NCBI GenBank assembly: GCA_016867395.1
Contig: VGJS01000011.1
Span: 1-64,000, forward strand
Length of the DNA: 64,000 nt
Source of the DNA: Candidatus Handelsmanbacteria bacterium
GTDB taxonomy: Bacteria; Latescibacterota; UBA2968; UBA8231
Direction of reading: 5' to 3'
The position numbers and the translations under genes were made by a program. Below are positions 32,606 to 39,354 of this stretch, piece by piece; position 1 is the stretch's first letter; every line of letters begins with the position of its first letter. Below the pieces are notes generated by a model. The model worked only from the letters and a program-made list of their open reading frames with translations. It had not been told where the DNA came from and did no database searches.

Positions 32606-33451
32606 TCAGAAAACCCAGACGATCAGCATCGAACCTCCGATGTAGCCAAACGCTTCGAGAAGTCCGGCCCCGACATTGGGGGCCGCCTCCACCTGCTCTG
32701 ACCCCAGCTTCACTCCGCCGGCCAGCACCAGGTCGGAGAGTTTCTTGAGCAGGAGCAGCATCAATAGCCCGAAGAAGGCGTCCTCGGCGAAGAGGACCAG
32801 GCTCTGGGCCCAGCCCTCAAAGTCCCCCCCAACCGCCAGGCTGAGGATATTGCCCATGCCCACCAGGGCTCCACCAAAGGCCAGGCCCACTGCAGCGTTG
32901 TCGCGCTCCAGCTCGCGGTGGACGTCGTGGGGGGTCACCCATTCGTACAGCAAACCGGCCAGGAGCAGCACCCCCTGGGCCAGGACCCAAAAGACCACCC
33001 CGATCCACCAGGGTCCCTGGCCTTGGAGGATAGCCAGTACGATCAGGCCATTGGCAATGTGCAGGCCCGCTTCCACGAAGGCCGCGCCGAGATTCTGGTC
33101 CCGCACCACCTCGGCGGTATTGTCGAAGTGTGGCAGCAGGGCCTTCTCGGACACCCAGCTGGCCGCCAGCATCAGGGCGATGCCCTTGAGCCCGGTCAAG
33201 GCGATGGCCGCCACGTCGGCCCGCAAGCCCGCCGAGGGACCCCACAGGGCGCCACCCAGGCCGATGACCACCCCCAACAGGTACCCGGCCAGCGCCATGG
33301 CCAAGGCGGGGTTGTTGCGGGTGAAGAGTTCGTGTCCCAGGTCCACCCGCCGGTAGAGCCGGGCGTAGGCCAGGCGTGCCAGCCAGAGCAGGGCAAAAGC
33401 CTCCAGCACGTACACCAGGGACTTGGCCATGGGCAGCAGATGCTCCGCCAT
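32606..33451 (-). CDS. DUF350 domain-containing membrane protein (tandem)
   Basis: FTRNNPALAMALAGYLLGVVIGLGGAL ... LERDNAAVGLAFGGALVGMGNILSLAVGGDF: two DUF350-like repeats. Confidence 0.82.
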   Translation of the reverse strand: MAEHLLPMAKSLVYVLEAFALLWLARLAYARLYRRVDLGHELFTRNNPALAMALAGYLLGVVIGLGGALWGPSAGLRADVAAIALTGLKGIALMLAASWVSEKALLPHFDNTAEVVRDQNLGAAFVEAGLHIANGLIVLAILQGQGPWWIGVVFWVLAQGVLLLAGLLYEWVTPHDVHRELERDNAAVGLAFGGALVGMGNILSLAVGGDFEGWAQSLVLFAEDAFFGLLMLLLLKKLSDLVLAGGVKLGSEQVEAAPNVGAGLLEAFGYIGGSMLIVWVF

Positions 33452-33464
33452 CCTCGTCTCCCTT

Positions 33465-34160
33465 CTATTTGCCGGCTCGCACCGAGCCGCTGCCCCAACT
33501 GCTGCCCCCGCGACCCATGCGCGATTGCACCCGCTCGCGGAACTGGGGGCTGCCCAGGCGCTCCTGGTAGCGCTTGAAGAACTCGGGCCGGCTTCGTTCC
33601 ACTGTGGTGCCCCCGGTGCCAAAGGGGGTGCGGCCCCCGGCGTTAGGACCGGCGTAGGGCTGGCCCCGCTCGTAGTTGCGGCGGTAGTCGCCGTAGTCGC
33701 TCCGGTTGATCTGCCACCCGCCCAATAGCTGGGAGAGGAGCATGTACTGCCCGTAGAACTGCCAGAAACCGCCCCCGTCCCAGAATCCGTACCGGGGGTT
33801 GTCCACGTACTGATAGCCGGGGGGATGGGCCTGGCCCGGGCCGCTCCGGCGGCCATCGGGGTTTTTGGCCGCCACCACCATGCCCAGGTAGTTCTCGTAC
33901 CTGCCGTAAACCTCTTCGCCGACCTGGTACTCCTCGCTGAGCCGCTCCTCCCAGCGCAGGCTGTCGCCGCCGGCCCCGGACGCGGCGAGGACCCGGAAAC
34001 GCACGAAGTAGTCGGGGAAAAAACCCTCCTCCTCGCGCAAGTCCTCGACGATCACCGAGTACTCGGGATGGCGGTTGAGGTCCTCGACCAGGTCTTCGAG
34101 GGGGTCTCCTCCCCCACCGCAACCGGCCAGGAACAGCACGAGCAGCGCCAACCGGATCAA
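33465..34160 (-). CDS. Hypothetical lipoprotein in the PspA/SpeE-like operon
   Basis: MIRLALLVLFLAGCGGGGD lipobox; ATGA overlap with the DUF4178 gene. Confidence 0.75.
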   Translation of the reverse strand: MIRLALLVLFLAGCGGGGDPLEDLVEDLNRHPEYSVIVEDLREEEGFFPDYFVRFRVLAASGAGGDSLRWEERLSEEYQVGEEVYGRYENYLGMVVAAKNPDGRRSGPGQAHPPGYQYVDNPRYGFWDGGGFWQFYGQYMLLSQLLGGWQINRSDYGDYRRNYERGQPYAGPNAGGRTPFGTGGTTVERSRPEFFKRYQERLGSPQFRERVQSRMGRGGSSWGSGSVRAGK

Positions 34161-34702
34161 GCCCCCCCCTCCTTTGGCGCCGGCAGGATATCGGTAAACT
34201 GGTACTCCTCCACGTACTCCCCCTCAAAGGAGCGGTAATCCCGCTCCCCCCACTGGGAGACAAAGAGCACCCGGTCCCCTTCGGCGGTCTCGTAGGTCCA
34301 GCTCACAAACTCCCGGCCCAGGCCCTTGCCCCCCTCCACGTACTCGCCGGCGCTGGAGGAGATCGCCCGGTAGACCCGGCCCTGATAATGGAGTTCCTCG
34401 GGAGGGTCGCCCTGCCTGGCGATGACCTCGGCCACTGGCTCGGACAGCTCGCGCAGGGAGATCCTGGCGCTCAGTATCCACGTCTCTTCATCTTGCTCCA
34501 GGTAGCGCAGCAGGTCGCCGCAGCGCAGCTCCCATTCCCTGGTCTGGGCACCCTCGTAATCGCAGGTGGCGTACCCCACCACCTCCCAGGTCTTGAGGTC
34601 GTAATCCACCAGGCAACCCACCTGCATGGTGTCGAGGGTGTACTCAGGGGGGGGCGGGTCCTCTTCCCCGCCTTCCCCGCCGCCGAACCATTTGCGGATC
34701 AT
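34157..34702 (-). CDS. DUF4178 domain-containing protein
   Basis: LDTMQVGCLVDYDLKTWEVVGYATCDYEGAQTREWELRCGD...YLEQDEE. Confidence 0.78.
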   Translation of the reverse strand: MIRKWFGGGEGGEEDPPPPEYTLDTMQVGCLVDYDLKTWEVVGYATCDYEGAQTREWELRCGDLLRYLEQDEETWILSARISLRELSEPVAEVIARQGDPPEELHYQGRVYRAISSSAGEYVEGGKGLGREFVSWTYETAEGDRVLFVSQWGERDYRSFEGEYVEEYQFTDILPAPKEGGA

Positions 34703-34710
34703 TCCGGCTC

Positions 34711-37889: not shown

Positions 37890-38597
37890 TCACTTCAGGC
37901 CCATCTTGGCCTTGAGCTGGGCCAGGGAATCCTCCACCTTGGGCGAGGCCGAACCCTTGAGGGCCTTGTCGATCTCCTCGTCCACGGTGCGGCTGGTGTC
38001 GGCCATCTCCCCGTACGCCTGGGCCAGGGACTCCTGCTCGTTGACCTTCTCCTTCATCCGCTCCAGCAGGCTCACCGTGCCGCTGGGGTCGATGTTGGCC
38101 AACCGCTGGTTGATCTTGCGCGTGGCATTGGCCGTCTTGCTGCGGGCCTTAAGCAGGATGAGGTCGTTCTCGTAGGCCGCCACCTTGGATTTGAGGTCGT
38201 TGATGTTGCTCTGGAGCTTGTCGGCCATCTGCTGCTGGGCCAGGGACTGCTGGCCTGCCTCCAGTGCCCGGCCGCTGGCCTCCTCCTTGCGGCTGAGGGC
38301 CTCGCGGGCCAGGCGCTCGGCCTCGGCCGGCACCAGGTCCCCGCCTTGGGCCTTTTGCAGCAGAAGCATGGCCTTGCGCTCATAGTCGGCGGCCAGCCGT
38401 TTGTTGTCCTCGGCCTCCTTGTTGAGGCGGATGGCAATGCCCTTGACCTCGGCCAGGCTTTGCAGGCTTTCGTGCAGGTCCTTCTTGAGATCGCGCACGG
38501 CCTGCTCGCTGAGTTTGATCGGATCTTCGAGCCGGTCCATGATCGAATGGGCCTCGGCCTGCCCGGTCTTGAACAAGCGCTGGAAGATACCTGCCAT
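37890..38597 (-). CDS. pspA: PspA/IM30 family protein
   Basis: MAGIFQRLFKTGQAEAHSIMDRLEDPIKLSEQAVRDLKKDLHESLQSLAEVKG...SLLERMKEKVNEQE. Confidence 0.93.
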   Translation of the reverse strand: MAGIFQRLFKTGQAEAHSIMDRLEDPIKLSEQAVRDLKKDLHESLQSLAEVKGIAIRLNKEAEDNKRLAADYERKAMLLLQKAQGGDLVPAEAERLAREALSRKEEASGRALEAGQQSLAQQQMADKLQSNINDLKSKVAAYENDLILLKARSKTANATRKINQRLANIDPSGTVSLLERMKEKVNEQESLAQAYGEMADTSRTVDEEIDKALKGSASPKVEDSLAQLKAKMGLK

Positions 38598-38606
38598 CGT
38601 GCCTCC

Positions 38607-39005
38607 TTATCTGCCGGCGAAGGCGAGTAGTTCCGCCCCGTTCTCGGCCAGCCCCAGGCTAAGGGCGTTGAGGGTGGATTCCAGCTCGTTCAGATCGAGA
38701 CTGTCGAGAGCCAGGGTGTCGCGGAAGAGCAGGCGCTCGCCCCCCTCGTCCAGCACAAAGGAGCCGTGGACCAGATTGCGGTTCATCTGGAGCAGGCGGC
38801 GGTAGGTCTGGGCCGGGGTGGCGGGGTCGAGGCGCAGGATCAACTGTTCGAGGACCAGGATCTCCCCCTCGCAGTCGATGATCAGCTTGCGGATCCCCCG
38901 CTCGGTGTCATCGACGATGAAGAGTTCCTCCCCTGGCACCTCCTGGTAGATGCGCAGGCCCAGTTCGAGGATATAGGCTTTGACCTTGTCGTAGGCTGGG
39001 GACAT
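38607..39005 (-). CDS. YbjN-like / type III chaperone-like fold protein
   Basis: VKAYILELGLRIYQEVPGEELFIVDDTERGIRKLIIDCEGEILVLEQLIL...YRRLLQMNRNLVHGSFVLDEGGERLLFRDTLALDSLDLNELESTLNAL. Confidence 0.65.
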   Translation of the reverse strand: MSPAYDKVKAYILELGLRIYQEVPGEELFIVDDTERGIRKLIIDCEGEILVLEQLILRLDPATPAQTYRRLLQMNRNLVHGSFVLDEGGERLLFRDTLALDSLDLNELESTLNALSLGLAENGAELLAFAGR

Positions 39006-39009
39006 GGGA

Positions 39010-39354
39010 TCAGCTATGCTCCTTGGCGCGGTGCGCCCTTTCGAGCTCCTGGAAGGCCTGGGTCAGCCGCGCACTCAGCTCGCCGGCCACCCGCCGCTTC
39101 TCCAGGTCGTTGGCGTGGAGGTCGGGATGGTACTGCTTGAGCAGGCGTTTCCAGGCTTGGCGGGCGGTTTCGAGGTCCGTCCCATAGGGGATTTCGAGGT
39201 TGGCGTAATACTGGGCCAGTTGTGGGTCAATCCCTGACGACGTTTGCGGCCCAGGCCGCTCAAACGCGGGTTCGCCGGCGGCCTCCCACTCCTTCCGCCC
39301 ACGGCTCCCCACCTGGGCGCGGGCGAGGAGCCAGAGGCGTCTGAGCAGATCCAT
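39010..39354 (-). CDS. J-domain (DnaJ-like) protein
   Basis: YYANLEIPYGTDLETARQAWKRLLKQYHPDLHANDLEKRRVAGELSARLTQAFQEL with HPD motif. Confidence 0.85.
   Translation of the reverse strand: MDLLRRLWLLARAQVGSRGRKEWEAAGEPAFERPGPQTSSGIDPQLAQYYANLEIPYGTDLETARQAWKRLLKQYHPDLHANDLEKRRVAGELSARLTQAFQELERAHRAKEHS

What the first reader, a model, noticed from the sequence alone, without database searches (positions are those of the whole stretch)
32606..39354. Eight-gene PspA / SpeE-like / amine oxidase-like / DUF4178 / DUF350 operon with YbjN-like and J-domain genes
Seen: eight tightly packed minus-strand genes in the order J-domain, YbjN-like, PspA, FAD oxidoreductase, TM-spermidine synthase-like, DUF4178, lipoprotein, DUF350, with overlaps or gaps under about 15 bp. 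Established: PspA/IM30 is a membrane-stress ESCRT-III-like protein; PspA-DUF350-polyamine enzyme neighbourhoods (e.g. E. coli yjf genes) have been noted by comparative genomics, but their chemistry is largely unknown. Inference: an envelope-maintenance system in which an aminopropyl donor enzyme and an FAD amine oxidase modify a polyamine or protein target at the membrane, with PspA and a J-domain cochaperone as remodelers. The YbjN-like, J-domain and lipoprotein members may be new components.
Basis: partly seen in the sequence, partly recalled or inferred. Interest (0 to 1): 0.82.

Follow-up and report, generated by a model that had tools for sequence, protein, structure and literature searches.

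The report
PspA operon with exported amine oxidase
Eight tightly packed bacterial genes combine a known membrane-protection/polyamine operon with an extra enzyme that appears to be sent outside the inner membrane to oxidise amines, which suggests where this little-understood chemistry ends up.

Summary
In detail: eight minus-strand genes (J-domain, CesT/YbjN-like, PspA, FAD, TM-SpeE, DUF4178, lipoprotein, DUF350) lie in 32606-39354 with gaps or overlaps of 13 bp or less. Six of them are a published operon type (Ravi et al. 2024, PMC11237479). The "YbjN-like" gene and the lipoprotein are therefore not new parts. New in this PspA context are the J-domain gene and above all the FAD gene. The FAD protein is an amine-oxidase-fold enzyme starting at a CTG codon conserved in five genomes. 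It carries a twin-arginine signal and lipobox, so it is predicted to work outside the inner membrane. By sequence profile it resembles spermidine dehydrogenase SpdH. Within the phylum the FAD gene sits in 19 of 20 such operons of one family and in 0 of 21 of two sister families. In Planctomycetota, Myxococcota and Acidobacteriota it occurs in a PspA-less operon with SpeD, DUF4178, short DUF350 and TM-SpeE. The genome also encodes a separate homospermidine pathway, so TM-SpeE is unlikely to be the housekeeping triamine synthase. Most likely a membrane-coupled aminopropyl product is made, then oxidised on the outer face, with PspA scaffolding. The acceptor and chemistry are unproven.

The parts
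39010..39354 (-). J-domain protein, 114 aa, HPD motif; first gene of the tight run
   Evidence: homologs at the same place in 16 loci counting the window; absent in L022/L132 and L131
38607..39005 (-).
   Evidence: PF22550 1.6e-42, YbjN 6.7e-09
37890..38597 (-). PspA/IM30 family protein, 235 aa
   Evidence: PF04012 1.4e-45; scores 49.9 bits against the TIGR02977 PspA cut-off of 242.95, so not the proteobacterial PspA equivalog
36227..37879 (-). Tat-signal lipoprotein flavin amine oxidoreductase, 550 aa, CTG start at 37879-37877
   Evidence: AlphaFold2 pLDDT 90.2; amine-oxidase fold
37880..37892 (-). PspA stop and GAGG Shine-Dalgarno-like motif before the CTG start
   Evidence: read; same arrangement in L004-L007
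34711..36234 (-). TM-SpeE: seven hydrophobic segments plus C-terminal polyamine aminopropyltransferase domain, 507 aa
   Evidence: PF01564 1.7e-39; NF002956 618.7 bits, cut-off 472; catalytic residues kept in 79 homologs
34157..34702 (-). DUF4178 protein, 181 aa
   Evidence: PF13785 4.1e-16
33465..34160 (-). Lipoprotein (LAGC lipobox), 231 aa, TTG start
   Evidence: invariant Cys14 in 18 homologs
32606..33451 (-). DUF350 protein, eight hydrophobic segments, tandem DUF350, 281 aa; last gene
   Evidence: PF03994 1.2e-42 with two stretches; hydropathy
39386..41977 (-). 863-aa polytopic membrane protein upstream; probable operon member in part of the family
   Evidence: homologs just upstream in 10 other loci; absent from L012, L017, L133 and L134, where J remains
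41961..46295 (-). FtsX-like permease / M28 peptidase protein overlapping the 863-aa gene; conserved neighbour, membership unsure

Best explanation
An envelope-maintenance operon in which an aminopropyl group is put on an amine acceptor at the inner membrane and the product is then oxidised on the outer face of that membrane. Proposed steps: (1) SpeD, encoded elsewhere in this genome, makes decarboxylated AdoMet. (2) TM-SpeE transfers its aminopropyl group to an unknown amine held at or passed through its membrane domain. (3) The product reaches the outer face, perhaps with help from the 8TM DUF350 protein. (4) The Tat-exported FAD lipoprotein oxidises it there in the manner of spermidine dehydrogenase, passing electrons to the respiratory chain. 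(5) PspA with the CesT-like chaperone and the J-domain protein forms the cytosolic membrane-remodelling side, and DUF4178 and the lipoprotein are adaptors. Shown by sequence: gene order and conservation, APT catalytic residues, Tat signal and lipobox, amine-oxidase fold, SpeD in the genome. Inferred: acceptor, product, side of step 2, electron acceptor, role of the PspA part, and roles of DUF350, DUF4178 and the lipoprotein.
For: APT active-site residues (window Y274, D299, D353, D371, D374) are invariant in 79 homologs, and the protein exceeds the NCBIfam aminopropyltransferase cut-off. FAD has a twin-arginine motif in all homologs whose N-terminus could be read (about 76), usually with a Cys following (including the rows its pattern missed). 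Best profile match of A1 in the PDB is SpdH, 4.6e-11, with conserved H40 aligned to SpdH His54, a heme b ligand (PMC12564564); H40 is invariant in 35 sequences. Fold matches: bacterial MAO, putrescine oxidase, SpdH. FAD lies near TM-SpeE in 71 of 81 loci across several phyla. SpeD is next door in PspA-less operons and in five class A loci. The genome separately encodes pyruvoyl arginine decarboxylase and a homospermidine synthase-like gene, so a TM-SpeE reserved for the membrane is plausible.
Against: No substrate or activity is known for any of the proteins. The FAD gene is dispensable: sister families keep the other six genes without it, and G040 lacks it in an otherwise similar operon. The SpdH match is local (two segments), with a wider profile SpdH is third behind a putative aminooxidase and MAO B, and the second heme ligand could not be aligned. 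The positive-inside pattern of TM-SpeE with seven segments would put its enzyme domain outside, which conflicts with a cytosolic donor. No transcript data.
Confidence: 0.5

Rival explanations
1. Plain polyamine homeostasis: TM-SpeE is the cell's spermidine synthase that happens to be membrane bound, and the FAD enzyme is a catabolic spermidine dehydrogenase that degrades excess polyamine outside. PspA and the others only respond to polyamine levels at the membrane.
For: All APT catalytic residues present; SpdH-like FAD enzyme; TM-SpeE is the only strong SpeE and SpeD the only AdoMet decarboxylase in the genome.
Against: The genome has its own arginine decarboxylase and a gene matching the homospermidine biosynthesis model (552.6 bits, cut-off 450). 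A plain spermidine synthase needs no membrane domain. From memory of Li et al. 2019 (not held in the library), TM-type SpeE fusions did not restore spermidine in E. coli.
Confidence: 0.22
2. Both reactions take place on the outer face: TM-SpeE has seven crossings with its enzyme domain outside, and the membrane part or DUF350 brings the aminopropyl donor across.
For: Seven hydrophobic segments in the averaged profile of each homolog group; in 78 of 79 homologs the positive charges lie in loops 1, 3, 5 and 7. The FAD partner is exported.
Against: Hydropathy only; one missed or re-entrant segment reverses the result. No precedent known to me for an exported aminopropyltransferase; the donor is made in the cytosol.
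Confidence: 0.13
3. The FAD protein is not an amine enzyme but acts on another envelope molecule (for example an isoprenoid or lipid), and its link with SpeE is indirect.
For: The fold superfamily also holds protoporphyrinogen oxidases and phytoene desaturases; overall identity to solved amine oxidases is only 14-21%.
Against: Best matches by sequence and fold are amine, putrescine and spermidine enzymes, and the physical link with SpeE and often SpeD recurs across phyla.
Confidence: 0.12
4. The eight genes are neighbours by chance.
For: None found.
Against: Same order in 18 other loci and a rearranged six-gene version in sister families.
Confidence: 0.01

Closest known systems
'Second group' CesT/Tir-PspA operon of Ravi et al. 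2024 (PMC11237479; examples AAN56744.1-AAN56747.1)
   Same: CesT/Tir-PspA dyad, 7TM-spermidine synthase-like protein, 8TM DUF350, lipoprotein, DUF4178
   Different: The published description names no FAD oxidoreductase and no J-domain gene in this group; here both are inside the gene run, with an 863-aa membrane protein upstream
PspA-less polyamine operons of the same paper (AdoMet decarboxylase, polyamine oxidase, DUF350, band-7)
   Same: Polyamine oxidase, SpeD, band-7 and DUF350 together; our class B loci broadly fit this description
   Different: No PspA/CesT; DUF4178 sits in a larger protein and DUF350 is short. The window combines the oxidase with the PspA dyad
Spermidine dehydrogenase SpdH of Pseudomonas aeruginosa
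   Same: Tat-exported flavin amine oxidoreductase (PMC11107197); N-terminal region and His54 align; same fold
   Different: 14-16% identity in the fold alignment; predicted lipoprotein anchor here; linked to an aminopropyltransferase operon; second heme ligand unproven
E. coli yjf-type operon (third group of Ravi et al.)
   Same: PspA paralog, CesT/Tir-like partner, DUF350, polyamine link
   Different: Uses an ATP-grasp glutathionylspermidine synthetase-like enzyme instead of TM-SpeE; no DUF4178 described

Membership tests
CesT/Tir-PspA-TM-SpeE operon (Ravi et al. group 2) | Adjacent CesT/Tir and PspA genes | tested here: met
   PF22550 and PF04012, gap 9 nt
CesT/Tir-PspA-TM-SpeE operon (Ravi et al. 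group 2) | SpeE domain fused to N-terminal 7TM region | tested here: met
   Seven hydrophobic segments, C-terminal PF01564
CesT/Tir-PspA-TM-SpeE operon (Ravi et al. group 2) | 8TM DUF350 protein | tested here: met
   Eight segments, two DUF350 stretches
CesT/Tir-PspA-TM-SpeE operon (Ravi et al. group 2) | DUF4178 protein | tested here: met
   PF13785 4.1e-16
CesT/Tir-PspA-TM-SpeE operon (Ravi et al. group 2) | Lipoprotein with Ctha_1186 domain | tested here: inconclusive
   Lipobox and conserved family shown; Ctha_1186 itself was not compared
Polyamine aminopropyltransferase | Catalytic residues of the APT active site | tested here: met
   Y274, D299, D353, D371, D374 invariant in 79 homologs; aligned to solved APTs; residue roles are from my own knowledge
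Polyamine aminopropyltransferase | NCBIfam curated cut-off | tested here: met
   NF002956 618.7 bits, cut-off 472
Polyamine aminopropyltransferase | Makes spermidine or another polyamine | not testable with these tools
   needs enzyme assay
Spermidine dehydrogenase SpdH-like | Flavin amine oxidase fold | tested here: met
   AlphaFold2 model pLDDT 90.2; SpdH E 5e-23, TM 0.63
Spermidine dehydrogenase SpdH-like | Tat export signal | tested here: met
   KRRRFL then lipobox-like Cys; RR conserved in relatives
Spermidine dehydrogenase SpdH-like | Two His ligands of heme b (His54, His562) | tested here: inconclusive
   H40 aligns with His54 and is invariant; no alignment reached His562
Spermidine dehydrogenase SpdH-like | Oxidises spermidine or spermine | not testable with these tools
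   needs enzyme assay
PspA, proteobacterial equivalog | Curated TIGR02977 cut-off | tested here: not met
   49.9 bits, cut-off 242.95; PspA/IM30 superfamily met
J-domain protein | Pfam DnaJ cut-off and HPD motif | tested here: inconclusive
   27.2 bits, cut-off 27.8, HPD present

The most novel reading that the evidence does not exclude
Bacteria carry an outer-face aminopropyl pathway: a membrane-embedded aminopropyltransferase and an exported SpdH-like lipoprotein act in sequence on an envelope amine that is neither free spermidine nor homospermidine (for example a lipid or protein amine), giving an aldehyde or shortened amine that changes the envelope, with PspA, CesT-like and J-domain proteins as the membrane-remodelling arm.
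Probability: 0.15. Interest if true: 0.9.

Novelty: new variant of a known kind. Interest (0 to 1): 0.55.

Why it matters
TM-SpeE and DUF350/DUF4178 operons occur in several phyla and are linked to PspA, yet I found no reported product. Finding that a predicted exported amine oxidase recurs beside TM-SpeE, both with PspA and without it, narrows the question to one testable chain: aminopropyl transfer at the membrane, then oxidation outside. It also gives natural with/without comparisons (sister families, G040 against G041) and culturable carriers (Corallococcus, Archangium, Rhodopirellula) in which to test it.

Tried and rejected
Chance neighbourhood: rejected. Anti-phage defence: no PADLOC match beyond weak or fold-level hits. 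Filing PspA as the proteobacterial PspA equivalog: fails the cut-off. Aligning SpdH's second heme ligand with a C-terminal profile (A3): found only weak MAO hits, none to SpdH. Lipoprotein fold: AlphaFold2 pLDDT 58.3 and no significant PDB match, so no conclusion. Gammaproteobacteria as a comparison group: PF22550 over cut-off in 0 of 243 and FAD in 3 of 243, so it could not test P(FAD | operon) there. Li et al. 2019 is not in the library, so its result is cited only from memory. Two family scans failed on wrong coordinates and were repeated.
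Full report
What is there. Their order is J-domain, CesT/Tir-like, PspA, FAD, TM-SpeE, DUF4178, lipoprotein, DUF350, with gaps of 4, 9, 10, 8 and 13 nt and overlaps of 8 and 4 nt. Pfam and NCBIfam support the names, with one change: the YbjN-like gene is a CesT_Tir_1 protein (145 against 36.5 bits). The J-domain match is marginal by Pfam (27.2 bits, cut-off 27.8) but has the HPD motif.

A correction to the FAD gene. 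Its listed ORF begins at an internal TTG. The reading frame upstream encodes KRRRFLGALLAGGLPWLQRC, a twin-arginine signal followed by a lipobox-like Cys. No ATG, GTG or TTG precedes it in frame. The only plausible start is CTG at 37879-37877, 8 nt after GAGG. The same CTG is kept in L004, L005, L006 and L007. Of about 76 homologs whose N-terminus could be read, all show RR near the start; the automatic pattern missed 12 RREI/RRAW/RRDI-type rows that can be read in the printout. So the FAD protein is predicted to be exported folded and mostly lipid-anchored.

What the FAD protein is. Its profile best matches P. aeruginosa spermidine dehydrogenase in the PDB (4.6e-11). With a wider profile, SpdH is among the top matches with other amine oxidases. 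The conserved GH motif (H40, invariant in 35 sequences) aligns with SpdH His54, a heme b ligand (PMC12564564). SpdH is itself predicted Tat-exported and periplasmic (PMC11107197). The AlphaFold2 model is good (pLDDT 90.2), and fold search returns bacterial monoamine oxidase, putrescine oxidase, MAO and SpdH. The second heme ligand could not be tested.

What is already known. Ravi et al. [quoted passage not shown] That is six of the eight genes here. [quoted passage not shown] The passages read do not mention the oxidase, or a J-domain gene, inside the PspA operon.

Distribution. A scan of GTDB genomes with the FAD profile gave 80 loci, the best by identity, so the sample is not random. Two architectures appear. 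Class A (19 loci counting the window) has CesT-PspA-FAD-TM-SpeE-DUF4178-lipoprotein-DUF350, mostly with J and often the 863-aa membrane protein upstream; five end with SpeD, four of them with a potassium channel gene in between. Class B (Planctomycetota, Myxococcota, Acidobacteriota, Competibacter and others) has, in varying completeness, band-7, SpeD, a DUF4178 fusion, short DUF350, TM-SpeE, FAD and often a polytopic His-containing protein. FAD lies near TM-SpeE in 71 of 81 loci. CesT_Tir_1 was found in 1 of 7 class B genomes, weakly.

Presence and absence in the phylum. Of 65 genomes of the window's phylum, 42 have CesT_Tir_1. In the window's family, 19 of 20 such genomes have FAD on the same contig next to it. 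In two sister families it is 0 of 21 (counted by hand from the listed places), where CesT-PspA-DUF4178 and TM-SpeE-DUF350-lipoprotein face each other in the regions fetched. G040 lacks FAD between PspA and TM-SpeE while its genus-mate G041 has it. So FAD is a lineage-specific, losable part of this operon. In the TM-SpeE tree, A and C each form one supported group.

Metabolic setting. The genome (97.5% complete) has one SpeD and one strong SpeE, the operonic one; a second, weak SpeE-like protein is below the cut-offs of its NCBIfam matches. It also encodes a pyruvoyl arginine decarboxylase and a homospermidine biosynthesis protein (552.6 bits, cut-off 450). A housekeeping triamine can therefore probably be made without TM-SpeE, which suggests, but does not show, a dedicated role.

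Mechanism. The APT catalytic residues are invariant in 79 homologs, so aminopropyl transfer is likely. The product is probably at or near the membrane, because the enzyme is fused to seven hydrophobic segments. Oxidation outside follows from the Tat signal and fold. PspA, CesT-like and J-domain proteins have no export signal and are placed on the cytosolic side. Which molecule is modified, what the oxidation achieves, and how the two sides communicate are inference. A puzzle remains: in 78 of 79 homologs positive charges favour N-in, and seven crossings would then put the SpeE domain outside. A missed or re-entrant segment would remove the puzzle.

Verdict. Real operon, mostly of a published type, with a new variant part whose predicted location and partners sharpen an open question. 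Novelty: new variant of a known kind.

Noticed in passing
window 37877-37879 (-), also L004-L007: A CTG start codon on the FAD gene conserved in five related genomes, with no ATG/GTG/TTG alternative ahead of the Tat signal.
   Followed up: partly
L068:11586-12650 (+) and homologs in 22 loci: A polytopic membrane protein without Pfam or NCBIfam match follows FAD in class B operons and has several conserved His motifs; it could be an electron acceptor or a membrane oxidoreductase.
   Followed up: no
L015:8202-9251 (+), with homologs in L009, L012, L025, L026, L133, L134, L135: A potassium channel with an RCK domain follows DUF350 in part of class A, in most cases with SpeD after it (Pfam scan on the L015 copy only).
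   Followed up: partly
L131:2560-2960: Natural absence of FAD between PspA and TM-SpeE in G040, while genus-mate G041 (L132) has it.
   Followed up: partly
window 25399-30396 (-): A 1665-aa secreted-looking protein with repeated domains, dockerin-like segments and a C-terminal sorting-like tail; named by eye only.
   Followed up: no
window 31591-32592 (+): LPG_synthase_TM flippase-like protein, convergent to the operon; a cluster that appears to be the same gene is kept there in 12 loci.
   Followed up: partly
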